Notes under the pieces: generated by a model
Databases searched by the model: none
What the model saw: the letters and a program-made list of their open reading frames with translations, nothing else
What the model was told of the DNA's origin: nothing
Source of the DNA: Caldilineaceae bacterium
Lineage (GTDB): Bacteria > Chloroflexota > Anaerolineae > Caldilineales > Caldilineaceae
Assembly (NCBI GenBank): GCA_020433455.1
Contig: JAGRCP010000074.1
Coordinates: 1-47,550, forward strand
Length of the DNA stretch: 47,550 bases
Direction: 5' to 3'
Shown here: piece after piece, positions 7,684-25,775 of the stretch
Position numbering within the stretch: position 1 is the first letter of the stretch
How the letters are laid out: the number at the start of each line of letters is the position of its first letter
Made by a program: the position numbers and the translations under genes

Positions 7684-9747
<2,064 letters not shown>

Positions 9748-9772
9748 GCAGCATCTATCAAGGCAATCACCC

Positions 9773-10339
9773 ATGAACATCAACAAGCAACTGGCGGATA
9801 TCCTGGCCCGAGACTGGTGGCTGCTATTGTTGCGCGGCCTTCTTGCGATTGCGTTCGGCATCTTCGCTTTTGCACAACCGCAGATTTCTCTGGTCACATT
9901 GGTGATTGTCTTCGGCGCATACGTCATGCTAGACGGCATTCTGACCGTCTGGTCCGCCTTTACCGGCCGCACGGAGCACGAAGACTGGTGGCTGCTTCTG
10001 CTCTGGGGATTGATGGGCATGGCTATCGGCGCCATCACGTTCCTGGCGCCGGACATCACGTCCTTTGCGCTGCTCTTCTACATCGCCGTCTGGGTGATTG
10101 CCACGGGCATTATCGAAATCGTCGCGGCCGTCCGCCTGCGCCAGATGATGGAAGGCGAATGGATGCTGATCCTAGCCGGCGTTATCTCCGTTCTCTTTGG
10201 CCTCTTCCTTGTGGCGCAACCGGGCGCGGGCGCGATCACCCTGCTGCGGGTAATTGCCGTCTATGCCATTATTTTCGGCGTCATTTTGGTGGGATTGGCC
10301 CTGCGGGTGCGCGGCTTTACCCGGGGGATGGTCGTATAG
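9773..10339 (+). CDS. HdeD-like (DUF308) membrane protein
   Basis: 188 aa with six hydrophobic segments arranged as three helical pairs, each beginning with a W-W-L/L-I-L-G/R-G pattern (DWWLLLLRGLLAIAFGIFAF, DWWLLLLWGLMGMAIGAITF, EWMLILAGVISVLFGLFLV). This internal threefold repeat is the hallmark of the HdeD/DUF308 family. HdeD is linked to acid resistance at high density in E. coli, but the molecular role of the family is not known. The ATG at 9773, 25 bases after gyrB, has AAGG 8 bases upstream; it may be read through from gyrB. It is followed by a strong terminator. Confidence 0.85.
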   Translation: MNINKQLADILARDWWLLLLRGLLAIAFGIFAFAQPQISLVTLVIVFGAYVMLDGILTVWSAFTGRTEHEDWWLLLLWGLMGMAIGAITFLAPDITSFALLFYIAVWVIATGIIEIVAAVRLRQMMEGEWMLILAGVISVLFGLFLVAQPGAGAITLLRVIAVYAIIFGVILVGLALRVRGFTRGMVV

Positions 10340-10371
10340 GCCGGCGCAATTCCAGAGCAAGCACCCAAAGA

Positions 10372-10410
10372 CAAATGGGGGCATTGGCTCAGAGCCAATG
10401 CCCCCATTTG
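10372..10410. terminator. Perfect 39-base palindromic terminator
   Basis: The segment is a perfect palindrome with arms CAAATGGGGGCATTGGCTC and its complement around a single central base; the working hairpin would have a loop of a few bases. It is followed on the plus strand by CTTTCATTTT. It lies between convergent genes (HdeD-like, plus; phosphodiesterase, minus) and can serve both directions. Confidence 0.75.
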
Positions 10411-10424
10411 CTTTCATTTTAGCG

Positions 10425-10487
10425 CCGGCTGACACTTTATCGCCGTGGGGTCTGTCCCACTCCCCACGGCGATAAAGCGTCAGCCGG
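10425..10487. terminator. Second long hairpin, 26-bp stem with one mismatch
   Basis: Arms 10425-10450 and 10462-10487 pair over 26 bases with a single A/G mismatch (position 10434) around an 11-base loop. It ends two bases before the phosphodiesterase stop at 10490. Most likely a terminator for that minus-strand gene, though no U-run follows; the length is unusual for one. Confidence 0.55.
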
Positions 10488-10489
10488 AC

Positions 10490-11407
10490 CTACCCGCCCG
10501 GCTCAATCGCCTCTTCCTGCACCAATTCCAGAAGCCGCTCAGGGTAATCGGTGTTGATTCCATCTACCCCCAGCCCAATGATGCGCTGCAAATCCGCGGG
10601 CTCATTGATGGTCCACGGCTGGACCGGAAGGCCGCGGGCGTGGGCGGCCCCGATAAAGCGCGGCGTTAAAAGATGAAAACCGCCGGCGGATTCAGGAATC
10701 TGAAACGACTGATAGGGCGGCGTGCGCGGGTCGCGCAATCCCAAACGAAAGAGAATATAAAACCAGCGGACCTCTTCCTCTGTGGCCGACGTGGCCACGG
10801 CCGGGCATTCGCGGCGAAACGCATCCATATTCGACTGGCGGAAGCTGCTGATCAGGACCTGATCTTCCATATCGTATTGGCGTATGAGCGCGCAAAATGT
10901 CCGGGCGGCAAGATCGGGATCGGCCTGCTTGATCTCGATTCCAAAGCGAGAATCGGGAAAGCGCACGAAGAGCGCTTCCAGCGTGGGTACGGTCAGCCCT
11001 TTGCCGCGCCAGGGAAAGGTTGAGCCGCCGTCCGGGCTGAAGTTATATCCTGCGTCAAACTGCTCCACTTGGGCCAGCGTCAGGTCGCGCAGCGCGCCGC
11101 TGCCGTCGGTAGTACGATCGACCGTTTGATCGTGAATGAGCACAGGCACGCCGTCAAGAGTGAGATGCATGTCCGCGTCCAGCACATCCGCGCCCGCGGC
11201 CGTAGCCTGCTCGAATGCCAACATCGTATTGCTGGGCCATTGCCCCTCGCCGCCCTGATGGGCGAAGACAAGGGGCGCGTGTTCGCCGGTGCGCGGGACA
11301 AACCAGGGATGGGGCGGGACGGGGCGAGCCAGCAGTCGGGACGCGGACCAGAGCAGGGCCAGAACGAGAACGCTTAGCAGAAGAGTCTTGCGCATCGCCC
11401 GCCCCAT
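10490..11407 (-). CDS. Membrane-anchored glycerophosphodiester phosphodiesterase family protein
   Basis: TIM-barrel phosphodiesterase of the GDPD family, expected to hydrolyse glycerophosphodiesters to glycerol 3-phosphate and an alcohol outside the membrane. 305 aa. Residues 6-28 form a signal anchor (RKTLLLSVLVLALLWSASRLLA). The barrel shows the family order: H50-Q-G-G, P-S-N-T (58-61), D77-A-D79, IHDQTVDRTT (H92), IEIK, and PWTIN / GVDGINTDYPE near the end. Several usual residues differ: the HRG Arg is Gln, the PENT Glu is Ser, and the ELD Glu is Asp, while both His and the later Glu are kept. The start may be ATG 11407 or ATG 11395; neither has a clear Shine-Dalgarno. Divergent from the flavoenzyme gene, 85 bases away. 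Confidence 0.85.
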   Translation of the reverse strand: MGRAMRKTLLLSVLVLALLWSASRLLARPVPPHPWFVPRTGEHAPLVFAHQGGEGQWPSNTMLAFEQATAAGADVLDADMHLTLDGVPVLIHDQTVDRTTDGSGALRDLTLAQVEQFDAGYNFSPDGGSTFPWRGKGLTVPTLEALFVRFPDSRFGIEIKQADPDLAARTFCALIRQYDMEDQVLISSFRQSNMDAFRRECPAVATSATEEEVRWFYILFRLGLRDPRTPPYQSFQIPESAGGFHLLTPRFIGAAHARGLPVQPWTINEPADLQRIIGLGVDGINTDYPERLLELVQEEAIEPGG

Positions 11408-11492
11408 AGATGAAAATTACGCACGGATAATCTCCCGTAATGAGTCAAAACAACAAATTCAAGCATAACCGGAAAATCCAGGGGAACCAACA

Positions 11493-12677
11493 ATGAACGT
11501 TGACGTAGCGGTGGTCGGCGGGGGCATGATAGGCAGCGCGGCGGCGCGCTATCTGGCAATGGGGGGCGCACGCGTGGCCATTATCGGCGCGCCCGAGCCG
11601 ACAAAGCCCCACGGCCCGGACCAGGTATACGGCAGTCACTATGACCAGGGGCGTCTGGCCCGACGGTTGAGCAAAGACGCGCTTTGGGTGCGCATGACCA
11701 CGCGCTCGCTGGACGTTTATCCCCGCCTGGAAAAGGCAGCGGGCATTCCCTTCTATCGGGCTGTGGGCTGTCTCCACGTAAGCGGAGAAGCGCCCGACGC
11801 ATCACGCGCGGTTGAGATGCGGGACGTGGCCGAAAAAGAGGCTATTCCCTACCGCTTCTACCCGGCCGGCGACGACGGTTGGAGAGAAAAGGCTTTTGGG
11901 TTGAATTTTCCGGCTGCTTGCCACGTGCTTTATGAACCGGCGCCCGCGGGCATGATCAATCCCCGGGCGCTGGTTCAGGCCCAGCTACGCGTCGCCGAGC
12001 AACACGGCGCGACGCTTTTGCGCGAGACGGTTATTGACGTGACGGAGAACGAACGGGGCGTCACGCTCGCCACGAGTCAAGGGACAACCCTCCACGCACA
12101 GCGGGTCCTCATCGCGGCGGGGGGCTTCACCAACTTTCACAATCTGCTGCCCTGTCCTCTGCCCCTTACCCTCAAGGGCGAAACTGTCATCCTGGGCGAA
12201 GTAACGGCCGAAACGGCTGCGGCCCTGGCCGACATGCCCATCCTGACCTATCAAATCGACCACCCCCAATTAAGCGGCATCTACATGACGCCGCCTGTTC
12301 TCTATCCGGACGGGCGTTTTTACGTGAAGATGGGCTGCAATTTTACAGGCGATATCCGGCCGCAAACGCTGGCGGAGGTGCAGCAATGGTTTCGCCGCGG
12401 CGGCGGTGAGGACCCCAAACCGGCCATGGCCCAGGCGCTGCAAGCCATTCTGCCTGACGTGGCGTTCATCAGCCTGGATACCCGACGCTGCCTCATCTGC
12501 TACACGCCCGGCGGCGCGCCCATCATCGATGCGCTCAGAACGAGGGTCTTTGTGGCCGCGGGCGGTAACGGCAGCAGCGCCAAATGTTCGGATACGCTGG
12601 GCCGGCTGGCAGCGGGCCTCATGCAGGGCGATCCGTGGCCCGCAGCATTCGATCGGGAACGGTTCAGGGCGTGCTGA
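11493..12677 (+). CDS. FAD-dependent oxidoreductase of the monomeric sarcosine oxidase (DAO) family
   Basis: Flavoenzyme expected to oxidise an N-methyl or secondary amine, releasing hydrogen peroxide. 394 aa, the usual size for monomeric sarcosine / N-methyltryptophan oxidases. The dinucleotide-binding motif VVGGGMIGSAAARYLA is at residues 7-22. The segment RRCLICYTPGGAPIID has Cys333 where monomeric sarcosine oxidase carries the Cys (Cys315) that binds FAD covalently, followed by FVAAGGNGSSAKCSDTLGRLAAGL, which matches the family's C-terminal FAD segment in altered form (GNGSSAK in place of GFSGHGFK). Substrate is not predictable. Start ATG 11493 with AGGGG upstream. The gene stands alone; no tetrahydrofolate enzymes adjoin it. 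Confidence 0.85.
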   Translation: MNVDVAVVGGGMIGSAAARYLAMGGARVAIIGAPEPTKPHGPDQVYGSHYDQGRLARRLSKDALWVRMTTRSLDVYPRLEKAAGIPFYRAVGCLHVSGEAPDASRAVEMRDVAEKEAIPYRFYPAGDDGWREKAFGLNFPAACHVLYEPAPAGMINPRALVQAQLRVAEQHGATLLRETVIDVTENERGVTLATSQGTTLHAQRVLIAAGGFTNFHNLLPCPLPLTLKGETVILGEVTAETAAALADMPILTYQIDHPQLSGIYMTPPVLYPDGRFYVKMGCNFTGDIRPQTLAEVQQWFRRGGGEDPKPAMAQALQAILPDVAFISLDTRRCLICYTPGGAPIIDALRTRVFVAAGGNGSSAKCSDTLGRLAAGLMQGDPWPAAFDRERFRAC

Positions 12678-12710
12678 TGGGGCGGTGATTTTCGCTGTAT
12701 GCATCCGCGC

Positions 12711-13022
12711 CTATTCCTGCTGCAAATAGATAAAGAGAAGCAAACTAAAAACCAGGGTAAATCCTGTGACCACGCCCGCGCCGGTGAGGAGTACGTGCGC
12801 GGCCGAACGCTGGTTAAAAAAGGTGGCAATAAGGGCTACCGCGCCAATCGCACTCAAAATGATGGTCACAAGGAAGAGATAAACAATGGGCACGGAGGTC
12901 GGTTCATCGTCTTCGCCTTGGGCCGCGGCCAGGCCGAACCAGTAAGAAAGGGCCGCGCCCAGAAGCGAAGCGCCGCCGCCGATAAAGAGACCGGTTAGAA
13001 AAACAGAGAGGGAAGAGGGCAT
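12711..13022 (-). CDS. Small membrane protein, third gene of the CHAT operon
   Basis: 103 aa beginning MPSSLSVFLTGLFIGGG. Three hydrophobic segments: ~7-32, ~44-68 and ~76-100; the loop between the first two is acidic (QGEDDEPTS). No family recognised. Its ATG lies 4 bases after the stop of the 2047-aa protein, so it is almost certainly in the same operon. A longer frame exists upstream in the same reading frame but runs inside the TPR gene and is an overlap artefact. A role as a membrane partner of the giant protein is a guess from position only. Confidence 0.7.
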   Translation of the reverse strand: MPSSLSVFLTGLFIGGGASLLGAALSYWFGLAAAQGEDDEPTSVPIVYLFLVTIILSAIGAVALIATFFNQRSAAHVLLTGAGVVTGFTLVFSLLLFIYLQQE

Positions 13023-13026
13023 AGGC

Positions 13027-16000
13027 TTAAGGTGAACTTTCCAGCTCTGCTTGGAGCATAGTAATAAAATTGACGCTGATATTTTGCGGATCAGCTGCGA
13101 TTGAGTGCAAGTCGTTGCGCGCTTCATCCAGGCGCTGCGTGCGCATCTCCTCATCTTCCAGCCTATTGGCCGCGTCAATGCCGGCAGCATAAGCGGCGGT
13201 TGCTCCATTGCCATCCCCCAGAGCCGTGAGCGCCAGCCCCAGGTTAAAATGCTCCCGGGGATCGTCAGCATCGATGGCGATGGCCTGACGTGAAGCCTGA
13301 ATAGAGCGGGCATAATCGCCCGTTGTATACGTGGCCCATCCCAAACGGGAGTAGGCATCGTGACTTGCGGGATCCAAGGCAACGGCTTCCTCCAATACCG
13401 TCACCGCGGTGTCGTGTTCACCCAGCGCAAAATAGGCTCGCCCGCCATAGTAAGCCAGCAGCGAATGTTGAAGACCCGCCTCTTGCGCGCGCTCATAGGC
13501 ATCACGCGCCAGGCGATAGCGCGCATTACGGTTGGGCCCGCCATGATATACCGCCCAGCGATAATAAGTTTCCGCCAGCGTCGCATACGCTGCCGCGTCA
13601 CCCGGATCCAGTATCAGCGCCCGCTCCATGGCCGCGGCGGCCAGGCCGAACTTATCGTCCGCCAAATCAAGTTCCGCCACCTGGTGCAGGGTAGTCACCT
13701 CATCCTGGTCCAACGTACCGACCAGCAGGGTCAAGACCGCCCGGCCTGACCCAACCTGACTCAAATTTTGACCGACAATCAGAGCATCGCGTAAAGAGTC
13801 CCAATAGGCATTTTCCAGCGGTTCCAGTCGCACGGCCTGGGTCAGGAAGGCCGTCGCCCGCGCGAACTGGAGATAGGCCGCGGTCCACTCATTCTTTTTA
13901 CGTGCCTCATCACCCAATTCATTCGCCTTGGCTCCCTCCTCTGCCAACGTCACGGCGTCGTTCGGGGCCAGTTCCGTCTGCCCGGTCACCGTCAATGCAA
14001 TCTCACCGGCAAATCCGGCGGCAAGGCGGGCATCATCGCCCGGCTGCATGAGCAGCTCTGTAATAGAGGTAGCCGCCGACGGAGACGACGCCGTCATGTC
14101 GGCCGCCCGCATTTCAGCATGGCCGCGTGCGTAGTAGACGGTTGCAGTTGCCGCGTCCCCATTCAGGAGGTAGGCATGAGCAATTGCATAGAGAATCTCC
14201 GGATCATCCGACGAACGCTGAAGGGCTTGTTCCAGCTCATCAAGCGCCGGCGCAATTTGGCCCAGGCGCAGATAAGTACGCCCCAGCACCAAGCGCATGT
14301 CGGCATCAAGCGGCCGTTGCGCTACAGCGTGTTGGGCAATCGCTAACGCCTCTCGCCGGCGCATGATGCGCACCGCTTCGTTATCGTTCAGAAGCGACCA
14401 CTTCTCATAGATGAGGGCAGCCAGGCGATTGGCGGTACGGCTATCAGGCACGTACGTCAAGGCCCGATCTACGGCTGTTTTGGCAAGAGGAATTGAATTA
14501 CGATCATATTCCGTTTGGGCAAATTCGATAAAAAATTGAGGGTTATCCGCCTGCCCGCCACGCGCCGCAATCAGGTCCAGCGTGGCCGCATGGGCGTCCG
14601 CAACCCCCATATCTGCACCGAAGTTGCTAAACAGATTCAGCAGCGCCGTACGCAAAATAATATCGCCCTGATAGGCAACATTTTCCTGCAATGCGCCGTT
14701 CGCGTACGCCTGCGCGGCCAGCCATCGCTCGGCGATTGCTGCATCCAAAAACCCTGCCTGAGCAAAGCTATCCGCCCGTACATAGCGAAGATTGCCTGCT
14801 GTCCGGTACCAATCGGCACGCGGCGTGATTTGCAGCGCCCTTTCATAGTCGGCCGCGGCCAGGCCCATGTATTCCCGGTAGTCAAAACGCTGCAAGGGGT
14901 CCTCATCACAGTTGGCCAAAATATAGCGCAACTGAGCGCGGGTACGATAAAAGGCAGCCAATGCCTTGCGGTCCAAATCGGTTAAACCATCCGCTCCCTC
15001 CGGGTAAGCGGCCAGTGCGGCAGACAGCGCTGATTCCGCCTGGAGATTCAGGTCAATATATTCGCCGACATATGCCGGATCATCAAAACTGTTAATACAA
15101 CTCCCCGGCAGCATGCGGCTTTGATACACAAGCGCCCATGCCAATCCGTTGTAGGCGGACAACGGATAATCCTTAATTCCGTTGGCGAATGCCTCCGCCG
15201 CAGCGCGTAAGCCGGCTTCATCCTCAGGTTTTCCCGACTCCCAGTTCACGCCGAGATTGATCTGCCCAATGCCGTAACCAATTTGGCTCAGGGCGGATAT
15301 ATCACGCGCGGACATGCTTCCCGCTCCTGTGGCGGCGAATATCCCCCGGGTCGATCTGCTGCGGGTTTGATCAAAGATTTGGCCGGCTTGCTCGAAGCGC
15401 GCGCGTGCCGCGTTCGGCGCGCTGTTTTTGTCCGGATAGGCCTGATTGATCAGGAGTGCGCCGTAAAACAGATCCCTCTCTCCGGCCGTGTGAAGCTCAT
15501 TTTCGTTTTCCGCCGCCACAGCAGCATAGCGCGTAGCGGCCAATCGCCAAATTTCCGCGCGCACGGCCGGTTCCAGGTCAAAGCCGGCGCGGTGAAGAGT
15601 TTGGGCAAGCTGTAATTTTTCGGTCGGCTTGAGCCACAAATCGGCCTGTTCAAGCTGTTGGATCGTCTCATTAACCCCCTCGCTCCTCCCCAGATAGGCC
15701 AACGCATTCAGCTTGAAGCGATACGCGCGCACATCGGGTTTCAGGTTAAGGGATTCATCAAATGCGGCAATCGCCCGATCATATCCGGAGCGAATGCGGC
15801 TCAAGCTGTTTTGCGCGCGGGCGAGCCGTTGTTGGGCTAATTCCAGCTCACCGGTCAAACGCACCTTTTCTTCAGGCAGCAAAAGCTGGGCATTAGCCAA
15901 ACCAATGCCGCGCGTATCGCTGATGGTTACTGCCGCGCTCAGCGGATCTTCTTCCAGTGTAACCAATTTTTGCTCCAGGTCGGCGATTTCCGCTTCCGCT

Positions 16001-19000
16001 TCGATTTGGCTGTTCCGGAAATCAGGCCCTTCGGCAGCAACGCTTGTCTGTGTGAGCTTAAACTCCTGATAGCCAATTGCCTGATAATGATAGCTGCGCA
16101 GCTCGAGCTGAATCTCATAGAGGGCGCCCACCATGACCAGCAGCGTCAAGGTAAGAAGGAGCGCCAGGCGCGATCGTTTACGCATCTGTTCCAGAATATG
16201 GGCCCGGTGATAACGCAACGTATCGTAGAGCACGAAGCTGCTGATGAAGAGGGCAATAACGCCCGCCAGGACGGCAGGGCGGCCCATGCGCATGGGCGAG
16301 GCGCTGATGAGCGCACTCAGCGCGGCCGCAGCCAACAATACGGGCAGTTGGCTGCGGCGATCGCGGGTATACAGGCGATAGCGGGCCGGCTGAATCAACA
16401 GCCAGTAGACCAGCGGCAAGGCCACGCCCAGTTCGATGAGGTTCCAGAGATCGGCAATGGTATAGATGCCGCTCCCGCCCAGGAGGCTGTAGCTGAGGAT
16501 GGCCTCATTTCGCAAGGCAACGAGGAGCAGCACGGTCTGCATGAGCAGGGCGCCGACGAAGACAAGCCCCCATCCCCGACAGAAGATGCTGATGCTCAAC
16601 TCCGTCACGCGCATAGAGAGGGATTTATCCCGGACGGGAGACGCGCAGCATGCGGCCACGCGCCCGCGAATCTGCTGCTCAAGCTGATCGTACCCCTGAG
16701 CCAGCCCGCTGATCTCCACCCGACCGCCGCGCGCGGGCAGGCCAATCGCCGAAAAGATGTCAATGGGCTCACGGCAGAAACGACGCGTGGAGTAGACCGC
16801 ACCGCGCAGATCGCGCCAGGCAATGCGCTCTCCAATGTTGTTGACCGTGCGGGAAATGCCCGCTTCGTCCAGGATAATCCGTTCCCGATTGCTCTCCTCC
16901 AGAGAGGCCAGAGGAAGCCTGCGTACCAAATACGCGCCCACGAACATATAAAACAGAATGAAGGAGGTAATCGCCAGGAGACCGCGCCAGAAAAGACTTG
17001 CCGGCGAAGGCAGTACGGCCAATTTTCGGCCCTGTTCAAGCTGTTGGAGAATCCGGAAATCCATCCATTCGAGCTGAGAGGCATCGATGATCAGATCAAA
17101 TTTCAGGCCGATATCCGGCTGAATCTCAAAGCTGAGAACGGAGAGCGCGCCGATGAGGAGCGCAAAAACAATGATCGCGGTCCGCTGATAAAAGAGCGAA
17201 ACAGGATGAACGTAGCGGGTGGCATAAACCCGTGCTTCTACGCTCCCGCTTACCGCCTGGATATCAGCCGTGGCCGCGGGGGGCAGTTCACCCGCTTTCG
17301 CCGGCCGCTCCAGGCGATTGAGCATCTGGGTCACGCGCACGTCATTGCCCGCGGATTGCCAGGCCTCAAGCGCAGCCCGGTAGTGAGAAGCCGCATCAGC
17401 CGCGTCGCGGCGCAGCTCGGCCAGCGCGCCCAGCCGGTTGTGACATTGGGCCGTACGCGCCCGCTGTCCCGCCTCGCGAAAAACGGGCAGGGCGCGGGTC
17501 AACAGGGCCAGGGCCTCGTCATGCCGGGCCCGGGCCAGATAGGCTTCCCCCAACATCAGATCGGCTTCGGCACGGGAAAAGCTCCCTTCGGGATAGGTCT
17601 GCTGCAGCGGTTCCAAATAGGCGACGGCACGCGCCGAATCATTCAGCACCCAGTAGAGTCGCCCCAACATCGCCCGAGTGCGATTGACGCCCGCCTCATC
17701 ATCCAGCGCCGCATACGCGCGTTCAGCCTGTCGCAGCCGGACGATGGCGTCGCCGAAAAGGCGGGCGATGATCCAATCCATGCCCTGGCCGAAGCGCAGC
17801 AAGTTGGGCAGAGGCCAGGCAACGCCCAGCTTAATCAGCAGATAGAAAACCAGGGGCAGGCGCACCAGCAGCGCGCCCAAAGACAAAGCCCCCATCCGGC
17901 CCGTGTACTCCTCCATAAGCGGATCGTATTCGCCCATGGACGCGGCGGCGATGCGCAAATAGGCGTCGCCGAAAAGTCCCAGAGTCTCCGCTTGCTCCCG
18001 GGGTTCATCCAGGCGCGCAAAGGCGGCCGCCGACTCCTCCAATCCCTCGACGCCTTCCACCCAGTCGCCCCGGGCGATGTGGACCATTGCCAGCCCCCGC
18101 GTCACCCGCGCGGCCAAATCGGGCGCAAGATCGTCTCGCTCGTTTAACCCTTCCAAAATAAGGTGAGCCGCGCTCTCATTGCCCTGGAGATGGTGGAACC
18201 AACCTTCCGCGTACTCGATGTGCGCGTATGCCGAAGGTGAAATCTGGTTGCGTAACCCCTGCAAAACAATGATGTATTGGCGGGCGGCTACGAGCCGACG
18301 ATCGTCTTCCGCAGCCTGGAAATAACGCGACAACAGCGCAGCGCCGACATCGCTGTCGGCCAGAAATGTGTGATAAAGATGGGCCTGACGCAGACGTTCC
18401 GTTCGGGCGGGATTCCGCGGCTGGGAACGGGGTGCGGACAGAGCAGGAGCAGCGGCCAGGCGCACGCCGAAGTGATGGGCCAGCCGGACGTTGACGGCCT
18501 GGTATTGTGCCGGGTTCGCCTGCCATCCGTGCAAAAGTTGTTCACGCACGTTCTCGCTCAGGGTATAGCGCGCCGACTCCCAGGGATAAATAAAGGAGAA
18601 ATCATTGAGCAGCGCAAGCGCCTCATGCTGACGGCCGTCGTCCTTCTGCCGCAGCACGCGCAGCACATCCGCATCAAACCAGCGGGGAATGGCGCATAAG
18701 GCCAGGAGACGGTGCATCTCCGGGCGGGTTACCTGCAAGTTGGTCAGCATGGATGCAGTATGCGCGTCTACCCCCTTGCCGTCACCGACCGGTTCGGTTT
18801 GGATGAAGGCATCAGACGCGTCATTGCGCAGTTGGGTTTCCAGCCGCTCAATGCGGGCGCGTACCCGCTCCTCGCATTCCGGCGTAAGGTGGGGCTGGGC
18901 CAAAGCCTGGGCATAGCGGCGCCGGGCGCGGTTGATGTTGCCTTCCGCCTGGGCCGCATCGCCCTGTGCGAGGAGTTCGCCGGCCTGCATGTCAGCCGCA

Positions 19001-19170
19001 CGCGACCGGGCTTCTATGGCCTGGGCGCGCAAAAAGGCCAAGGGAACGCCGTACCCCGAATGGGTCCGCCCCTGGACCGTCAGCTCATCGATGACGCGCA
19101 CCGCCCCGGTCCAATCTTCCTGCGCGGTCAGTTCGCCGATGCGCAACAGCAGGACGCCGGATTCAGTCAT
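13027..19170 (-). CDS. Giant winged-helix / TPR / multi-pass membrane / TPR protein
   Basis: 2047 aa from the ATG at 19170, which overlaps the upstream CHAT gene as ATGA. Order: helical N-terminus (1-140); a segment like the winged-helix part that normally follows a STAND NTPase (~145-250: MHRLLALCAIPRWFDADVLRVLR, then WESARYTLSENVREQLL); TPR-like helices (~280-640); two membrane spans (~655-675, ~725-750); a compact domain (~765-840) beginning ERIILDEAGISR and IAWRDLRGAV, reminiscent of bacterial PH domains; about five more spans (~870-1020); a coiled coil (~1060-1135, IEAEAEIADLEQKLVTLEED); then ~900 residues of TPR repeats to the end, for example YSRLGWATYTTGDYARSIQA and HFNLGLALTALGDGNGATAAY. 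It carries no enzyme motif. It is most likely the sensor or scaffold half of a system whose NTPase and protease lie in the preceding gene. TPR assignment is secure; the PH-like assignment is tentative. Confidence 0.85.
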   Translation of the reverse strand: MTESGVLLLRIGELTAQEDWTGAVRVIDELTVQGRTHSGYGVPLAFLRAQAIEARSRAADMQAGELLAQGDAAQAEGNINRARRRYAQALAQPHLTPECEERVRARIERLETQLRNDASDAFIQTEPVGDGKGVDAHTASMLTNLQVTRPEMHRLLALCAIPRWFDADVLRVLRQKDDGRQHEALALLNDFSFIYPWESARYTLSENVREQLLHGWQANPAQYQAVNVRLAHHFGVRLAAAPALSAPRSQPRNPARTERLRQAHLYHTFLADSDVGAALLSRYFQAAEDDRRLVAARQYIIVLQGLRNQISPSAYAHIEYAEGWFHHLQGNESAAHLILEGLNERDDLAPDLAARVTRGLAMVHIARGDWVEGVEGLEESAAAFARLDEPREQAETLGLFGDAYLRIAAASMGEYDPLMEEYTGRMGALSLGALLVRLPLVFYLLIKLGVAWPLPNLLRFGQGMDWIIARLFGDAIVRLRQAERAYAALDDEAGVNRTRAMLGRLYWVLNDSARAVAYLEPLQQTYPEGSFSRAEADLMLGEAYLARARHDEALALLTRALPVFREAGQRARTAQCHNRLGALAELRRDAADAASHYRAALEAWQSAGNDVRVTQMLNRLERPAKAGELPPAATADIQAVSGSVEARVYATRYVHPVSLFYQRTAIIVFALLIGALSVLSFEIQPDIGLKFDLIIDASQLEWMDFRILQQLEQGRKLAVLPSPASLFWRGLLAITSFILFYMFVGAYLVRRLPLASLEESNRERIILDEAGISRTVNNIGERIAWRDLRGAVYSTRRFCREPIDIFSAIGLPARGGRVEISGLAQGYDQLEQQIRGRVAACCASPVRDKSLSMRVTELSISIFCRGWGLVFVGALLMQTVLLLVALRNEAILSYSLLGGSGIYTIADLWNLIELGVALPLVYWLLIQPARYRLYTRDRRSQLPVLLAAAALSALISASPMRMGRPAVLAGVIALFISSFVLYDTLRYHRAHILEQMRKRSRLALLLTLTLLVMVGALYEIQLELRSYHYQAIGYQEFKLTQTSVAAEGPDFRNSQIEAEAEIADLEQKLVTLEEDPLSAAVTISDTRGIGLANAQLLLPEEKVRLTGELELAQQRLARAQNSLSRIRSGYDRAIAAFDESLNLKPDVRAYRFKLNALAYLGRSEGVNETIQQLEQADLWLKPTEKLQLAQTLHRAGFDLEPAVRAEIWRLAATRYAAVAAENENELHTAGERDLFYGALLINQAYPDKNSAPNAARARFEQAGQIFDQTRSRSTRGIFAATGAGSMSARDISALSQIGYGIGQINLGVNWESGKPEDEAGLRAAAEAFANGIKDYPLSAYNGLAWALVYQSRMLPGSCINSFDDPAYVGEYIDLNLQAESALSAALAAYPEGADGLTDLDRKALAAFYRTRAQLRYILANCDEDPLQRFDYREYMGLAAADYERALQITPRADWYRTAGNLRYVRADSFAQAGFLDAAIAERWLAAQAYANGALQENVAYQGDIILRTALLNLFSNFGADMGVADAHAATLDLIAARGGQADNPQFFIEFAQTEYDRNSIPLAKTAVDRALTYVPDSRTANRLAALIYEKWSLLNDNEAVRIMRRREALAIAQHAVAQRPLDADMRLVLGRTYLRLGQIAPALDELEQALQRSSDDPEILYAIAHAYLLNGDAATATVYYARGHAEMRAADMTASSPSAATSITELLMQPGDDARLAAGFAGEIALTVTGQTELAPNDAVTLAEEGAKANELGDEARKKNEWTAAYLQFARATAFLTQAVRLEPLENAYWDSLRDALIVGQNLSQVGSGRAVLTLLVGTLDQDEVTTLHQVAELDLADDKFGLAAAAMERALILDPGDAAAYATLAETYYRWAVYHGGPNRNARYRLARDAYERAQEAGLQHSLLAYYGGRAYFALGEHDTAVTVLEEAVALDPASHDAYSRLGWATYTTGDYARSIQASRQAIAIDADDPREHFNLGLALTALGDGNGATAAYAAGIDAANRLEDEEMRTQRLDEARNDLHSIAADPQNISVNFITMLQAELESSP

Positions 19171-21230
19171 AGCAGCCAATCCTCATCGGCGGCCGCGGCG
19201 GAGCGATCGATGTAGCCGTCAACCAATTCCGCCAGCATCACCGGCTTGTTGTGCGCGTTAAAGTCCATGACAAACTGGACGAAGTTCTCATGCTTATCTA
19301 AAATCGAGAGCGCACCTCGGCGTTGAATATATTCGCGAATGTGGCGCTCTTCAAAGCCGGATAACCCCGTGGCTGCGATGGAGCCGGTCAGGGCTGCGGC
19401 AAAGCCGGGATCGACGCGCCCGGCCAGCACCACCACCACATTCGACAAACGATCGTCGTGAATGCGCTGCAGGAGTTCCTTTTCAATCCACGCGCGGGCT
19501 TCCGGCTGGATCCGCTCCAGGCTGTCGAAGAGGAAGACCGCACGCCGATCCGCTGACTGACGCCTGACGCAGTCAAAAAAGACATCGTTGATCCGTGCGT
19601 CGATCAGGGCCTTGATGCGCTCATTCTCCGCCTGGATAAGCTCGTAGCGATCCAATACCGGGGCGGCCCCACTGTCGGTCGCTGCCTGGACGCGATGGAC
19701 GGAAACGCGCCCGCCGGTCACCTCGTTGATGACCTGGGTGAGGGGTCGATAGTGCTGCTCCCCCAGGATATCCCGCGCGCGGCGCACGATATCCAGCGTA
19801 TCGCGCCCGATGGCGTCCTTGAAGTCGAAGACGACTGCCCCATGTTGGCGGCGGCGGGACTCATGGGCCATGCGCTGGATGAGCCAGGTTTTGCCCATGC
19901 CTTCGGGCGCGGTAATCAGCATGACGCGCTTATTTACCTCGCCGGCCAGCATCTTCTGAAACCCCCGGTAGGTACGCTCGCGGTTGACAAACCAATCTAC
20001 GTACTTTTCGGTGGGCAGAGGCAACGCGTCGCCATTCTCCGGGATCGATGACTGGGCTGCGCGCTGGTCGGTTATGGCGTCAAGTGACGCCGGCGCCGGA
20101 CGCGCAGGCGCGGTCATGCCGACAGGGGGCGTAAAGAGCCGACCGTCGCCGCTGCGCAGGTAGAGAACGGGCGTGACCCATTCTATGGGATTGCCCGCGA
20201 AATAGACGGCATTGCGCGCTTCCGCCAGGGCCGCATCCACGGGATAATAGTCGGCCAGGGCGGCATAAAATTCGGCGGAAAACTGAAGTGCGGCCTCATC
20301 GGTGATGGGGTGGGCCATGGCCAAAACGGCCGGAAGGCGACGGCGAATGAGCGATTGGGCCACGCCGCTGAAGGCGTAGCGAAGGTCGCCCTGCGCGCCC
20401 TGGCAAGCGTTAAGTACGGCCAGGCGCAACGGCCCATAATCAGCCAGCAAATCGCCCAGCCGGCGTTCATTTACCCTGCGTGCGGAGCCGTTTTCATTTT
20501 CAAAAACCAGCGCCCCCTCGCCGCTTGTCGGATCGAATTCACCGTGACCGATAAAATGGAGCAGGTGAACCTGACCCTTGCGTAGGCGATTCTGGAGCGC
20601 GCTGAGCGTAGGCGGGTCCAGAACGTCGATTTCGACGCGTCCGGCTTCGCGCAGGGACGCCAACGCCGCGGTAAGCTGCGTGAGTTCGCCCGCAACATCC
20701 AACGCAGGCAAATCGTCCGGCGCAGGAGCGACGATCAAGATGGTGAGCGTGCCGGACGTCTCCAGAGACGCGACAGCGCCCGGCGCTTCCAAATGCCGCA
20801 CCACGGCCGTCGCTCGGGAACGGGCCAGGGAGTCCTCGGTCAGGGGATCCCGGAGAATCTCCCAAGGCCAAAGCGCGACCTCGGGCACGTCGGTCAGGCG
20901 CAGACGCAGGCGCAACCTCTTGCCCTGTTTGCCGCTGTGTATGATGGCGGCCTGCCAAAGGCGCAACACATCGCCGGCAAATACCCGCGTAAAAAGGGCC
21001 TGTCCCAGATCCTGAACCGCCGCCTCTATCTCCCCGACTGCCGCGCTTTCACCGGCTGCCAGCAATTCGGCGAACGCGGCGTCAAATGCCGCTGCCTCGA
21101 ACCATGCATCCGCTTGTCCTTCCGGCGAATCCACGACCAGCGCGCGCAGGCCATCATCCTCGCGCTGAAGGCGGAGGACAAAATCCATATATTCAGGAAT
21201 TGATGCAGGGGGCGGCTGGTTGTGGGGCAT
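19167..21230 (-). CDS. CHAT-domain protease fused to a STAND-type NTPase
   Basis: 687 aa. After an N-terminal alpha/beta region (1-125) comes a CHAT (caspase HetF-associated) domain, about 130-400, with both catalytic residues: His229 in FIGHGEF and Cys276 in LNACQGA, followed by the family's A-M--P-I-T-D-E-A segment and YYPVDAALAEARNAVYF. A linker leads to a P-loop NTPase (~425-687): WFVNRERTYRGFQKML, Walker A APEGMGKTW (Lys447), Walker B AVFLFDSLE (~565) and GFEERHIREYIQRRG. It stops right after the NTPase; the winged helix and TPRs expected next are in the following gene, joined by ATGA. The ATG at 21230 fits the promoter at 21271-21299; the frame continues upstream but beyond that promoter. 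Known CHAT proteins are caspase-like proteases in prokaryotic defence and signalling; the trigger and substrate here are unknown. Confidence 0.88.
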   Translation of the reverse strand: MPHNQPPPASIPEYMDFVLRLQREDDGLRALVVDSPEGQADAWFEAAAFDAAFAELLAAGESAAVGEIEAAVQDLGQALFTRVFAGDVLRLWQAAIIHSGKQGKRLRLRLRLTDVPEVALWPWEILRDPLTEDSLARSRATAVVRHLEAPGAVASLETSGTLTILIVAPAPDDLPALDVAGELTQLTAALASLREAGRVEIDVLDPPTLSALQNRLRKGQVHLLHFIGHGEFDPTSGEGALVFENENGSARRVNERRLGDLLADYGPLRLAVLNACQGAQGDLRYAFSGVAQSLIRRRLPAVLAMAHPITDEAALQFSAEFYAALADYYPVDAALAEARNAVYFAGNPIEWVTPVLYLRSGDGRLFTPPVGMTAPARPAPASLDAITDQRAAQSSIPENGDALPLPTEKYVDWFVNRERTYRGFQKMLAGEVNKRVMLITAPEGMGKTWLIQRMAHESRRRQHGAVVFDFKDAIGRDTLDIVRRARDILGEQHYRPLTQVINEVTGGRVSVHRVQAATDSGAAPVLDRYELIQAENERIKALIDARINDVFFDCVRRQSADRRAVFLFDSLERIQPEARAWIEKELLQRIHDDRLSNVVVVLAGRVDPGFAAALTGSIAATGLSGFEERHIREYIQRRGALSILDKHENFVQFVMDFNAHNKPVMLAELVDGYIDRSAAAADEDWLL

Positions 21231-21270
21231 GCAGCAATCGTCCGTCTCTCTCCAGATAATCAATGCTTTC

Positions 21271-21299
21271 ATTGTAGACGGCGGGATGCAAGTTGTAAA
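21271..21299 (-). promoter_or_regulatory. Predicted sigma70 promoter of the CHAT operon
   Basis: On the minus strand: -35 TTTACA (21294-21299), 17-base spacer, -10 TACAAT (21271-21276), giving a transcript start near 21264 and a leader of about 35 bases to the ATG at 21230. The divergent gap is 362 bases (21231-21592); no gene, tRNA or clear promoter for the plus-strand neighbour was found in the rest. Confidence 0.65.
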
Positions 21300-21592
21300 C
21301 AGAGAATTTACCCTCGCCGTGCATCGGTGAAAACGGAGACAAACGCGCCTCGTTTTTGGGCAAGCCCTGCTTATGGGGCTATGATAGGCAGTGGTTGTTT
21401 TCACCGGATGCAGGTAGAGACGGCGGAACAATATCGTGACTCCCGACCAACAATTCAATGGTAAGCTGATTGGCCGGGATCCGGACATTCTCCGACTATG
21501 CGCTCTCTGAGCGACCAGCAATTTATCTTCTCTCTTCTACCATTTGCAGCGAGCAGGTTAACGCCTGCATAGCCTACTGTGGAGTACATCCT

Positions 21593-23422
21593 ATGAGTAC
21601 ACTCACCTCAAATGATGCGTCACATGACGTGCGCGAAACGGCCGAAGACCAGGCGATGGGCCAGAAGGCGGGACAGGAAACGCCCCAACCCCGGAACCCG
21701 AATCGGGCGCAGTTGGATTCTTACGTTCAGACGCTGCAACAGCAGAAGGACATCTGGGCCAATCTGGAATTGCCGGAAAAATTCCATCACATCATGGAGA
21801 TGCGCCGCAAGCTGAAGGAAGTGGCCGAACGCTGGGTCTATCTCGCTGCCGAAGCCAAAGGGCTGACGCCCGACTCGCCCTTATTGGGCGAGGAGTGGGC
21901 GGGCGGCCCCTGGACCTTGGCCCACGGACTGAATCGCTATGCCGAAACTTTTTACGCATTGGAGCACGGCGACGATCTGCTGAAGAATGCAGGCGATATC
22001 CGCGTCCACAAGAACGGACAGCTCATCGTAGAGGTGGCGCCGGTCAATTTTTACGAGGAAATTTTCCTCAACGGCGTACGGGCGGAACTGTGGATGGAGC
22101 CGGGGATTACGCGTGACAACGTAAGCGAGAACATGGCTCATTTCTATCGCAATCCCGCGCCCGAGGGAAAAGTCGCGCTGGTGTTGGGCGCGGGGAACGT
22201 GGCCGGCATCGCCCCCCTGGACGTGCTCCACAAGCTGCTGGCGGAGGGGCAGGTTGTCCTGCTCAAGCTCAATCCGGTCAACGATTATCTGCTGCCGGTC
22301 ATAGAAGAGCTGTTCGAGTCGCTCATTTCCTACGGGTTTGTTCGCATCGTTACCGGCGATGCGGATGTGGGCGCGTATCTCACCGAACATCCGGGCATCG
22401 ATACCATCCACATGACGGGCAGCTCCCACACCTATGACGCCATCGTCTTCGGCACGGGCGAAGAGGGCGAGCAGCGCAAAGCCGCGGGGACGCCGCGCCT
22501 GGATAAGCCCGTCACCGCTGAATTGGGCAACGTCAGCCCGACTATCGTATTGCCGGGCGACTGGAGCGACGCGGACATACGCTTCCAGGCCGAAAATATC
22601 GTCACCCAGAAGCTCCAAAACGGCGGCTTTAACTGCGTCGCCTCCCAGGTGCTGATCCTGCCCGCCAATTGGGAAAAGACGCCTTACCTGTTGGGCGAGA
22701 TTCGCGGCCTTTTGCGGACCGTGCCCCAGCGTCCTTCCTACTACCCCGGGGCGATAGACCGGGCGCAACGCTTCTCCGCATCCCACGGTCGGGTTGAAAC
22801 CATCGGCAATCCTGACGAAGGCGTTTCTCATCGGGTGCTCATCACGGAAGTCGATCCGGAGGACAAGGAAGCGCTTATCTTCTGCGATGAAGCGTTTTCC
22901 ACCGTGCTCGCCCAGACCAGTCTGCCCGGTGACGATGCGACCGAATTTTTCCAAAACGCCATCAATTTCGCCAACGATACGCTATACGGCACCCTAGGGG
23001 CCAACATCATTGTCGATCCCAAAACCCTCCAGCAAATGGGGCACGTCTTTGACAATATGCTGGCCGACCTTCGCTACGGAGCCATCGGCGTGAATATCTG
23101 GATTGGCGGCGCGTTTTCCCTGACCCAGACGGCATGGGGAGCCTATCCCGGCCACACGCCCGATGACATTCAGAGCGGTACGGGGAAGGTCCACAATGCC
23201 TTCCTCTTTGATGCGCCGCAGAAGACAGTCGTGTACGCGCCTTTCCGCCCCTTCCCGCGCAACCTGCTCCACAGGGAGCGATCCGTTCTGCCCAAGCCGC
23301 CCTGGTTCGTCACCAATAAGACCTCAGCCGAAACCTTCCGTCGGCTGACTTACTTTGAACTCGATCCGAATCCGCGGCACTTGCCGGGCGTCGTCTTTTC
23401 GGCCATGCGCGGCGCGCTATGA
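21593..23422 (+). CDS. Divergent aldehyde dehydrogenase superfamily protein
   Basis: NAD(P)-linked aldehyde dehydrogenase fold, 609 aa, longer than the usual ~480-500 because of a ~110-residue N-terminal helical extension rich in charged residues. Superfamily landmarks: [28 protein letters not shown] (cofactor region), [13 protein letters not shown] (~281), [17 protein letters not shown] with Glu310, and [15 protein letters not shown] with the catalytic Cys348. A C-terminal extension ([30 protein letters not shown]) is also unusual. The ATG at 21593 has GGAG 8 bases upstream. It ends 70 bases before malate synthase, on the same strand. Substrate is unknown; glyoxylate or a related 2-carbon aldehyde would suit the neighbour, but that is only a suggestion. 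Confidence 0.82.
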
Positions 23423-23452
23423 TTACGTATTCGCCTGTTGCAACCTTATATT
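23423..23452 (+). promoter_or_regulatory. Possible promoter of malate synthase
   Basis: TTACGT (23423-23428) and TATATT (23447-23452) are 18 bases apart in the 70-base gap before malate synthase. The -35 match is weak, so the gene may instead be transcribed from upstream of the aldehyde dehydrogenase gene. Confidence 0.35.
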
Positions 23453-23492
23453 TTACCCACCCACCATTCATGCTTTATCACAGGAGGAACCC

Positions 23493-25076
23493 GTGACTGA
23501 ATCTTTACCTGCCGGCGTGGAAATTGTCGGCCCAGTTAGCGAACAGGTAGAGGAAGTCCTGACGTATGATGCCCTGGCCTTCGTGGCCGATTTGCACCGT
23601 GCGCTCAATCCCCGTCGCCAGGAATTGCTGGCCGCGCGGACGGAACGCCAGACCGCCATGGACAACGGCCTGACGCCCGGCTTTTTGGAAGAGACGGCCG
23701 CTATCCGCGCCGGAGACTGGCAGGTTGCGCCCACGCCTGCGGACCTCAACGATCGACGCGTGGAAATCACCGGCCCCACAGAACGCAAGATGATGATCAA
23801 TGCGCTCAACTCGGGCGCCAAGGTCTTTATGGCCGACTTTGAAGACGCCCTCTCGCCCACGTGGGAAAATGTTATTGCCGGCCAAATCAACTGTAGCGAC
23901 GCCATCCGCCGCACCATCGAATTTCAAAATCCCGACGGCAAGACCTACACGCTGAATGAGGAAATCGCCACCCTGCTGGTGCGGCCCCGGGGCTGGCACC
24001 TCAATGAAAAGAACGTGCTGGTAGACGATGAGGAGATTTCCGGCAGCCTCTTCGACTTTGGCCTCTACATGTTCCGCAACGGGGCCGAACTGTTGGCTCG
24101 AGGCAGCGGGCCCTACTTCTACCTGCCCAAGCTGGAGAGCCACCTGGAAGCGCGCCTGTGGAATGATGCGTTCGTCATGGCCCAGGACAAACTGGGCATT
24201 CCCCAAGGCAGCATCCGGGCGACGGTGCTGGTGGAAACGATTCTGGGCGCGCTGGAGATGGAGGAGATCCTCTACGAAATTCGGGATCACGCGGCGGGAC
24301 TGAATGCAGGCCGCTGGGATTACATCTTCAGCGCCATCAAAAAATTCGCCCGCAGCGAAGAGATGATCTTGCCCGACCGCGCACAGGTCACCATGACCGT
24401 GCCCTTCATGCGCGCGTATACGGAATTGATGGTCCGCACGTGTCACCAGCGGGGCGCGCACGCCATCGGCGGCATGGCGGCCTTCATTCCCAATCGCCGG
24501 GATCCGGAAGTAACCGAGATCGCCCTGGCCAAGGTGCGGGAAGACAAGCTGCGGGAGTTCGGCGACGGCTGCGACGGGACCTGGGTTGCGCACCCGGATC
24601 TGGTACCCACCGTATTGGAGGTCGCCGACAAGTTCTTCGGCGACAAGCCGAATCAGAAGGAGCGCATGCGGGAAGACGTGAGCGTGGAGGCCGGCGAGAT
24701 CACGGACGTGGGCGTCCCTGGCGGCACGATTACCGAGGCGGGGCTGCGCACCAATGTGAACGTCGCGCTCCAGTACATCAACTCATGGCTCAACGGCAAC
24801 GGCGCTGCCGCCATTCACAATCTCATGGAAGACGCGGCCACGGCGGAAATTTCCCGCTCTCAGATATGGCAATGGATTCACCATAACGCAGCGCTGGATG
24901 ACGGCCGCCCTGTGACCCGGGAACTTTATCAGCAGATCATGGCTGAAGAACTGGACAGACTGGGCGGGCGGGAAACGTCGCGTTACGCGGATGCGGCTGC
25001 GCTCATGGACCTGCTCTGCCTGAGCGATGAGTTCATCGATTTTTTGACTTTGCCGGCCTATAATTATCTGGATTAA
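23493..25076 (+). CDS. aceB: Malate synthase A
   Basis: Condenses glyoxylate with acetyl-CoA to malate in the glyoxylate bypass. 527 aa, the normal size of the A-type enzyme. Signature regions: [17 protein letters not shown] (~108), [15 protein letters not shown] with the catalytic Arg, [53 protein letters not shown] with the metal-binding Glu and Asp, and [18 protein letters not shown] near the C-terminus with the catalytic Asp. The GTG at 23493 follows AGGAGG with 5-base spacing. Isocitrate lyase is not in the window, so the glyoxylate could come from elsewhere. A strong terminator follows. Confidence 0.95.
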
Positions 25077-25091
25077 CGAGCACACAAAACA

Positions 25092-25129
25092 AAAAAGGGC
25101 CGGGCTTCCTGGGAAGCCCGGCCCTTTTT
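25092..25129. terminator. Bidirectional terminator between malate synthase and rsfS
   Basis: Perfect inverted repeat AAAAAGGGCCGGGCTTCC (25092-25109) with its complement (25112-25129), flanked by A-run and U-run on both strands. It serves the convergent genes malate synthase (ends 25076) and rsfS (ends 25143). Confidence 0.92.
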
Positions 25130-25142
25130 ATTTCGATAGCGG

Positions 25143-25496
25143 TTAAAAAACCTTCACCACTACATTCCCCTTGTTCCACAGCCCTTCCAGATCATAGTGC
25201 TCGCGCATGGCGGCCGTGAAAAGGTGTACGATAACGTCGCCATAGTCGAGCACGGCCCAGCCGCCGTTGTTTTGGCTGACGCCGTCCAGATGCAGCGGAC
25301 GAATATTCTGTTCGAGCTTGAGCTTTTCCAGCAGGTCGTTCTCGATGGCAGTCGCCTGCCGTTCGTTATTGACCGTGGCAATGATGAAGTAATCGGCCAG
25401 CGAGGAAAATTCGCGGATATCGAGCAGGACAATGTCCGAAGCCTGCTTGTCCTCGACGAGATCAATGATGCGTCGAGCGAGAGAAATGCTGTCCAG
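25143..25496 (-). CDS. rsfS: Ribosomal silencing factor, apparent CTG start
   Basis: RsfS/YbeB family: binds ribosomal protein uL14 and blocks subunit joining, lowering translation in starvation. 117 aa. The family core is clear: IIDLVEDKQASDIVLLDIREFSSLADYFIIAT, then LHLDGVSQNNGGWAVLDYGDVIVHLF and a C-terminal REHYDLEGLW. The frame has no ATG, GTG or TTG between its upstream stop (TAG just before 25560) and the conserved core. AGGAGG lies exactly 5 bases before a CTG at 25494-25496, which gives the usual family N-terminus (LDSISLARRIIDLVEDK). I therefore take CTG as the start; an ATT 9 bases later is the alternative. The predicted promoter at 25546-25574 fits. Downstream neighbours in other bacteria (nadD, yqeK) are absent. 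Confidence 0.88.
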   Translation of the reverse strand: MDSISLARRIIDLVEDKQASDIVLLDIREFSSLADYFIIATVNNERQATAIENDLLEKLKLEQNIRPLHLDGVSQNNGGWAVLDYGDVIVHLFTAAMREHYDLEGLWNKGNVVVKVF

Positions 25497-25545
25497 AAGG
25501 GCCTCCTGTGGAATACGGATACGCTTACCAACGATTGATAAGAGC

Positions 25546-25574
25546 AGTCTAACACAAATCTACGCGCTTCTCAA
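25546..25574 (-). promoter_or_regulatory. Predicted rsfS promoter
   Basis: On the minus strand: -35 TTGAGA (25569-25574), 17-base spacer, -10 TAGACT (25546-25551). The transcript would start near 25539, giving a ~43-base leader to the CTG start. The remaining gap to the permease gene (25575-25775) holds no gene or clear signal. Confidence 0.5.
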
Positions 25575-25775
25575 CCATTTTGGGCTGTTCTTTTCCCAGT
25601 CTTCTTCTCCCCGCCAGGGAGCATCTGCGCCAGGAGCGGAGCCGCCCCACACGGGAAACGTACCCGCAACTTGCCAAGCAGGCGGGAATGGCTGAAACTT
25701 TCCCTGTTCACCAACGATATCCAGACGTTGCGCCGACAGCCGGACGCAACTTGCAGAAAGGAAACCCGATCCGCC

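What the first reader, a model, noticed from the sequence alone, without database searches (positions are those of the whole stretch)
12711..21230. Three-gene CHAT protease operon with a membrane-embedded TPR giant: candidate undescribed signalling or defence system
Seen: one promoter (TTTACA-17-TACAAT), a CHAT-STAND NTPase with intact His229/Cys276 and Walker A, then an ATGA overlap to a 2047-aa TPR/multi-pass membrane protein, then 4 bases to a 103-aa three-span protein. Established: CHAT domains are caspase-like proteases that act in type III-E CRISPR and in gasdermin and other STAND-based defences, often with TPR partners. Inferred: a membrane TPR protein senses a stimulus, the NTPase oligomerises, and the CHAT domain cleaves a target, possibly the giant or the small membrane protein. 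I know of no described system with this three-gene layout.
Basis: partly seen in the sequence, partly recalled or inferred. Interest (0 to 1): 0.8.

Follow-up and report, generated by a model that had tools for sequence, protein, structure and literature searches.

The report
Membrane-linked split NLR-like protease switch
Two adjacent genes encode what looks like an NLR-type molecular switch cut in two, with a caspase-like protease and its ATPase on one protein and a huge membrane-spanning sensor on the other; the ATPase-sensor pair recurs across the Chloroflexota, while the protease attached to it changes, and what it cuts is unknown.

Summary
In detail: a CHAT-NTPase (687 aa), a 2047-aa TPR/membrane protein and a 103-aa three-span protein lie on the minus strand with the stated junctions. 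The conserved unit is not the three genes but the NTPase plus its membrane TPR partner. Of 37 Chloroflexota NTPase loci with downstream sequence, 34 have the partner next on the same strand, 2 have it fused, and 1 lacks it. The third gene has no convincing relative. CHAT is linked in 4 of 40 loci; elsewhere there is an EAD1-trypsin or no adjacent effector. The pair reads as a STAND/NLR-type protein split over two chains and tied to the membrane by seven predicted helices, with the C-terminal TPRs probably outside the cell. New finding: the NTPase has an adaptor slot, filled in relatives by a Death-like EAD7 domain or a beta-arch motif. Where CHAT is a separate gene, its tail carries its own NTPase's motif (2 of 3 loci). 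In the window the slot is empty and CHAT is fused directly. The mechanism is inferred; defence is unproven, and stable synteny in one family argues against a pure defence role.

The parts
20199..21011 (-). CHAT (caspase-like) protease domain, residues 74-344 of the 687-aa protein; catalytic dyad His229 and Cys276
   Evidence: Pfam PF12770 E 9.7e-26, 91.3 bits; residues checked; Foldseek matches SAVED-CHAT filament 8tl0, Craspase complex 7zoq and transmembrane anti-sigma factor DdvA 8rw5
19170..19997 (-). STAND-like P-loop NTPase, residues 412-687; Walker A GMGKT 444-448; adaptor slot between about residues 505 and 535 is short and empty here
   Evidence: weak AAA_16/NACHT hits; 41-44% identical to stand-alone NTPases of G044 and G034; AAA+-type Foldseek matches
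13027..19170 (-). Membrane TPR partner, 2047 aa, ATGA overlap with the CHAT-NTPase gene
18520..18738 (-). Winged-helix-like region of the partner, residues 145-217 (H-H-H-E-E-H), at the place where a STAND winged helix follows its NTPase in the fused homologues
   Evidence: AF2 model, pLDDT about 83-94; order NTPase - this region - TPR in the single-chain homologues L123 and L148. Fold itself not matched to a solved winged helix
17242..18411 (-). Cytoplasmic TPR solenoid, residues 254-643
   Evidence: AF2 model; Foldseek/VIA match to LGN and Rap-type TPRs, Z about 20
16111..17205 (-). Seven predicted TM helices (residues 656-1020)
   Evidence: AF2 helices and hydropathy; positive-inside rule holds in 21 of 21 homologues
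16642..16881 (-). PH-like beta domain (residues 764-843) between TM2 and TM3, predicted cytoplasmic
   Evidence: AF2 secondary structure: six strands plus a C-terminal helix; no Pfam hit
13030..16083 (-). C-terminal TPR region (residues about 1030-2047), predicted outside the cytoplasm; candidate sensor
   Evidence: Pfam TPR; topology
12711..13022 (-). 103-aa three-span membrane protein, orphan; not part of the conserved unit
21271..21299 (-). Promoter-like site TTTACA-17-TACAAT
   Evidence: consensus match only

Best explanation
The CHAT-NTPase and the TPR/membrane giant form one receptor-like switch: a STAND (NLR-type) protein split over two chains and tied to the membrane. Shown by computation: domain content, pairing and gene fusions. 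Inferred: the C-terminal TPRs outside the cell (or the membrane domain) sense a stimulus; the change passes through seven helices to the cytoplasmic PH-like, TPR and winged-helix parts; these normally hold the separate NTPase in its off state; release lets the NTPase bind ATP and oligomerise, which clusters and activates the N-terminal CHAT protease, which then cleaves an unknown substrate. Relatives bring in their effector through an adaptor in the NTPase slot (EAD7 Death-like domain, or a beta-arch motif also present on the CHAT tail); the window's version has replaced that recruitment by direct fusion. The 103-aa protein is a lineage-specific passenger or accessory.
For: Pairing: 34 of 37 loci with downstream sequence have the partner next on the same strand, and in 2 (L123, L148) the two are one protein; 13 of these partners were not in the profile that found them. 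CHAT is fused in the window, immediately upstream in G034, and in the same run of genes in G145 and G042. Effector exchange at the same place: EAD1-trypsin 9 bases upstream of the NTPase in G029. Adaptor slot: EAD7 above Pfam cut-off in 7 of 10 NTPases scanned, weak in an eighth; CHAT-EAD7, caspase-EAD7 and TIR-EAD7 proteins occur in genomes of the same EAD7-bearing group, the CHAT-EAD7 one in G391, whose own NTPase carries EAD7. Motif match: G034 and G145 CHAT tails score 85 and 84 against their own NTPase, rank 1 of 39, 0 of 500 shuffles; 15 other CHAT tails score only 19-43. Topology: K+R 15.5% on inner and 5.0% on outer flanks, 21 of 21 homologues; AF2 mean pLDDT 78.
Against: No experiment. 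CHAT linkage is rare (4 of 40), and many pairs have no protease next to them, so protease output may not be general. The winged helix is inferred from predicted secondary structure and gene-fusion order only. A hydrophobic helix at 428-446 could change the topology if it crosses the membrane. The third motif pair (G042) is weak (rank 7 of 39, 3 of 500 shuffles). The window's own NTPase sits on a long branch without firm placement. Contact between the two chains was not modelled.
Confidence: 0.55

Rival explanations
1. An anti-phage (abortive infection) system: the giant or the NTPase senses infection, CHAT then kills the cell by cleaving a host or partner protein.
For: STAND NTPases, CHAT/trypsin/caspase effectors, EAD adaptors and BASS-like motifs are hallmarks of bacterial conflict systems (PMC7159879, PMC8195603, PMC7889193); patchy presence in the window's family (5 of 46 at E<=1e-8) and in f71 (14 of 41); the CHAT part matches PADLOC SAVED_CHAT (51.5 bits).
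Against: Neighbours of the window are housekeeping genes; the NTPase is single copy in 8 of 9 genomes of family f81, with the same upstream gene in the loci examined; no known defence partner, no CRISPR-like repeats nearby; the predicted sensor faces outward.
Confidence: 0.27
2. A regulated-proteolysis pathway for envelope or nutrient stress: an outside signal activates CHAT, which cuts a regulator such as an anti-sigma factor. It works like membrane-signalled proteolysis, not immunity.
For: Transmembrane sensor topology; stable single-copy presence and synteny in f81; an extracellular fasciclin lipoprotein sits in the run of genes where the partner lacks its outer TPR domain (G042; a similar fasciclin protein in G145); top Foldseek match of the CHAT-NTPase model is the transmembrane anti-sigma factor DdvA.
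Against: No sigma or anti-sigma gene among the window's neighbours that were identified; EAD and beta-arch adaptors point to effector deployment more than to transcription; effector identity varies between relatives.
Confidence: 0.33
3. The trio is a true three-gene system in which CHAT cleaves the 103-aa membrane protein (or the giant) to make a pore, as with bacterial gasdermins.
For: 4-base gap and same strand; gasdermin operons use CHAT-like proteases (own knowledge).
Against: The 103-aa gene has no convincing homologue and no family match; no similar gene was found next to the other pairs examined.
Confidence: 0.06
4. The CHAT-NTPase fusion is incidental and the giant is an unrelated transport or secretion scaffold that merely neighbours it.
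For: TPR and multi-pass proteins are common; many loci lack a protease.
Against: 36 of 37 loci adjacent or fused across several Chloroflexota families, two single-chain fusions.
Confidence: 0.05

Closest known systems
CARD-NLR systems (Lysobacter; LypABC of Caulobacter, PMC13236601)
   Same: Protease joined to an ATPase domain, a separate NLR-like TPR component, Death-fold adaptor (here in relatives), adjacent genes
   Different: There the NLR-like protein keeps ATPase and TPR on one chain and the adaptor is an N-terminal CARD; here the ATPase is split from winged-helix/TPR, the TPR chain spans the membrane, and the adaptor is an insert inside the ATPase
EAD-coupled conflict systems (Kaur et al. 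2020/2021, PMC7159879, PMC8195603)
   Same: EAD7/EAD1 adaptors, CHAT/caspase, trypsin and TIR effectors, STAND NTPases
   Different: The core there is vWA-MoxR-VMAP, GAP1 or STAND-FGS; I found no membrane TPR partner or EAD inserted within the NTPase in the passages read; the window protein has no EAD
BASS amyloid signalling pairs (Dyrka et al. 2020; review PMC7889193)
   Same: Matching short beta motifs on an effector C-terminus and an NLR-type protein of neighbouring genes; CHAT is a reported BASS partner
   Different: Reported BASS lie at the N-terminus of the NLR; here the motif is an insert inside the NTPase, and amyloid behaviour is untested
Craspase TPR-CHAT (Csx29, type III-E CRISPR)
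   Same: CHAT fold and dyad, TPR association
   Different: No CRISPR repeats nearby, TPR on another chain, NTPase present
STAND TPR sensor PH0952 (6mfv), Avs proteins, MalT
   Same: NTPase, then winged helix (inferred here), then TPR sensor
   Different: Single chains; here two chains and seven TM helices
Transmembrane anti-sigma factor DdvA (8rw5/8rot)
   Same: Best Foldseek match of the CHAT-NTPase model, membrane signalling protein
   Different: Matched by fold only; no sigma-factor partner seen here

Membership tests
CHAT protease | CHAT domain above the curated score with His/Cys dyad | tested here: met
   91.3 bits vs 24; His229 and Cys276 present
CHAT protease | Proteolytic activity | not testable with these tools
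   needs purified protein and a substrate
STAND/NLR-type NTPase | P-loop NTPase with Walker A and B | tested here: met
   GMGKT 444-448 and FLFD; AAA+-type fold matches
STAND/NLR-type NTPase | Curated Pfam score for AAA_16/NACHT | tested here: inconclusive
   window below cut-off; relative L043 passes NACHT 28.9 vs 26.7
STAND/NLR-type NTPase | Winged helix and repeat sensor on the same chain as the NTPase | tested here: not met
   in the window they are on the second chain; single-chain order occurs in L123 and L148. I therefore call it STAND-like and split
EAD-coupled conflict system | EAD on the core and on an effector | tested here: not met
   no EAD in the window proteins; met in relatives: EAD7 in the NTPase and CHAT-EAD7 in G391
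BASS pair | Matching motif on effector tail and NLR of one locus | tested here: not met
   motif absent in the window; met in G034 and G145, weak in G042
Type III-E CRISPR (Craspase) | CRISPR array near TPR-CHAT | tested here: not met
   no spaced direct repeats in 8000-27000; genome-wide search for Cas7-11 not done
Bacterial gasdermin operon | Gasdermin-like target next to the protease | tested here: inconclusive
   P0003 has no significant Pfam, PADLOC or NCBIfam match; fold of P0003 not predicted
CARD-NLR | CARD on the protease and an ATPase-TPR single-chain partner | tested here: not met
   no CARD hit; partner lacks an ATPase hit

The most novel reading that the evidence does not exclude
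A membrane-spanning NLR-like receptor family of Chloroflexota in which an outward-facing TPR sensor controls a separate cytoplasmic STAND NTPase that carries an exchangeable adaptor slot (Death-like EAD7, beta-arch motif, or none with the protease fused). This would be a bacterial 'transmembrane inflammasome' able to turn an outside signal into caspase-like proteolysis.
Probability: 0.35. Interest if true: 0.85.

Novelty: new variant of a known kind. Interest (0 to 1): 0.62.

Why it matters
Known bacterial NLR-type proteins are, as far as I could find, mainly single chains that sense things inside the cell. A version split in two and anchored by seven helices, with a large domain predicted outside, would extend this class to transmembrane signalling. 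The slot in the NTPase, filled by either a Death-like domain or a beta-arch motif and bypassed by fusion in the window, lays out in one family three ways to couple a switch to a protease, and gives direct, simple tests of the adaptor idea. Neither the NTPase nor the membrane partner has a named family in NCBIfam.

Tried and rejected
Three-gene unit: rejected because the small gene is an orphan and CHAT is rarely linked. Upstream 565-571-aa and 385-aa genes in relatives looked like conserved partners but are AMP-binding enzymes and FAD oxidoreductases, so stable neighbours and not effectors. Secreted subtilase upstream of L125: same strand, but 339 bases away with a signal/TM anchor, so not counted as an effector. 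First joint CHAT+NTPase alignment (A3) misplaced the NTPases and was discarded for A4. PDB sequence search with the NTPase profile gave mostly Rab-type P-loop hits. VIA-align of the giant's model tested mainly the TPR part, residues 266-831, so it says little on the winged helix or TM domain; no winged-helix entry was listed. G029 NTPase insert as EAD7: 7.1 bits, 0 of 200 shuffles reach it, suggestive only. A genome search around G117 was aimed at the wrong family and is not used.

Full report
OBSERVATION. All three genes exist as described on the minus strand. The CHAT-NTPase is 19167-21230 (687 aa), the TPR/membrane protein 13027-19170 (2047 aa) and the small membrane protein 12711-13022 (103 aa). 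The first two share ATGA; the third starts 4 bases after the second. Pfam gives CHAT at 91.3 bits and many TPR hits, with NTPase hits below cut-off. His229, Cys276 and Walker A are intact. The promoter-like site is real as a pattern, but such patterns occur by chance in this stretch.

WHICH PART IS CONSERVED. CHAT proteins are paralogue-rich in the window's family (42 of 46 genomes), so CHAT alone says little. The giant has detectable relatives in only 3 of 46 genomes by single-sequence search, its own included. The relative in G044 lies next to a stand-alone homologue of the NTPase half of the window's first protein. Using an NTPase profile (A1) I searched 46 genomes of the order, 396 of the class and 400 of the phylum, plus named genome contigs, which show that relatives include Caldilineaceae, Thermoflexales and Chloroflexales. 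Genes were called in 40 loci. Of the 37 with sequence downstream, 34 have the partner next on the same strand (33 by profile, L042 by BLAST), 2 are single-chain fusions (L123, 1315 aa; L148, 953 aa), and 1 (L115) has an unrelated gene there. Many partners were part of the profile used; 13 were not.

THE THIRD GENE. P0003 has no convincing homologue in 46 genomes of the family (one fragmentary hit at E 0.007 with a stop inside) and no family match. It is not part of the conserved unit.

EFFECTORS VARY. CHAT is fused to the NTPase in the window, directly upstream as a separate gene in G034, and two genes upstream in G145 and G042. G029 has an EAD1-trypsin-like protease 9 bases upstream instead. 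The other upstream genes scanned in relatives are mostly housekeeping genes. The tree of NTPases puts CHAT-linked members in separate places and the EAD7 members mostly in one group (99/96) that includes G029; the window is on a long branch without firm support.

ADAPTOR SLOT. Between the first part of the NTPase fold and Walker B the family has an insert. In 7 of 10 NTPases scanned it is EAD7, a Death-like adaptor, above the Pfam cut-off, and in an eighth it is weak. Genomes of this group encode EAD7 on other effectors: CHAT-EAD7 in G391 (whose own NTPase also has EAD7), caspase-EAD7 in G240, TIR-EAD7 in G339. In other loci the insert is a beta-arch motif of the type VGDVAGRDIIKDN. Where CHAT is a separate gene, its tail carries the motif of its own NTPase: G034 DSTISIGDVAGRDL against DSTVSMGDVAGRDI (score 85) and G145 ITGDIVGGNKTI against IGGDVVGGDKIT (score 84), both rank 1 of 39 NTPases and reached by 0 of 500 shuffles; G042 is weak. 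Fifteen other CHAT tails score 19-43 and only one carries a similar motif. The window has no insert and no tail motif. The simplest reading is that recruitment through a shared motif was replaced by fusion; this rests on few loci. (In one search the window's own row overlaps itself and is not evidence.)

ANATOMY OF THE PARTNER. The AF2 model of residues 1-1060 (mean pLDDT 78, pTM 0.72) shows a winged-helix-like element at 150-217, a TPR solenoid at 254-643, seven long hydrophobic helices between 656 and 1020, and a PH-like beta domain at 764-843 between TM2 and TM3. TPR matches are strong, and the STAND protein PH0952 (6mfv) is among the matches. In the single-chain relatives the NTPase precedes this region, as in ordinary STAND proteins. 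Positively charged residues are enriched on the predicted inner flanks in 21 of 21 homologues (15.5% against 5.0%). With the N-terminus inside, seven helices put the C-terminal TPRs outside. A hydrophobic helix at 428-446, within the TPR region of most relatives, is taken as peripheral; if it crosses the membrane the topology changes. In G145 and G042 the partner ends at the TM region, and a fasciclin-domain protein (a clear lipoprotein in G042) sits in the same run of genes, which fits an outside sensing role.

MECHANISM. Shown: domain content, pairing, fusions, adaptor exchange. Inferred: sensing outside or in the membrane, release of the NTPase, oligomerisation, activation of CHAT, cleavage of an unknown target. 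I rate this mechanism at 0.55.

ROLE. Defence is possible but unproven. For it: the component types and patchy presence in some families. Against a pure defence role: housekeeping neighbours and single-copy presence in 8 of 9 genomes of family f81, with the same FAD-oxidoreductase gene upstream in most of the loci examined. Regulated proteolysis for an envelope or environmental signal is at least as likely.

KNOWN SYSTEMS. The nearest are CARD-NLR/LypABC (PMC13236601), EAD-coupled conflict systems (PMC7159879, PMC8195603) and BASS pairs (PMC7889193). None described in the passages read has a split STAND with a seven-helix TPR partner or an adaptor inside the NTPase; the library holds only open-licence papers. 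I therefore rate it a new variant of a known kind.

Noticed in passing
L126:9682-15595 (-) and L130:3267-9477 (+): Four-gene run CHAT, fasciclin-domain protein (lipoprotein signal LTAC in L130), NTPase, TPR/TM protein that ends right after its TM helices; the fasciclin protein may replace the outer TPR sensor.
   Followed up: partly
L153:1471-3183 (-), L173:298-1707 (+), L162:1474-2847 (+): CHAT-EAD7, caspase-EAD7 and TIR-FGE-EAD7 proteins in genomes of the group whose NTPases have EAD7 inserted; G391 alone has 24 EAD7 matches.
   Followed up: partly
L124:5960-8220 and L128:299-4398: Relatives of the pair in which the TPR partner has no predicted TM helix, so soluble versions seem to exist.
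   Followed up: no
window 42069-47498 (-): 1809-aa protein with PKD, CARDB, Big_1 and invasin-type Ig-like domains, probably a large surface protein.
   Followed up: no
window 39919-40320 (+): IstB-like ATP-binding protein fragment (133 aa matching the last part of the 238-position family), likely an insertion sequence remnant.
   Followed up: no
L174:199-1722 (-), own genome contig C28: EAD1 protein whose C-terminus ends in GGGAYIAGDVHTGGDFVGRDKK, combining an EAD with a beta-arch-like motif in the window's own genome.
   Followed up: no
G752, G757, G766, G764, G459 NTPase matches: Several f71 NTPase matches have one in-frame stop within the matched stretch, possibly a split gene or a downstream start.
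   Followed up: no
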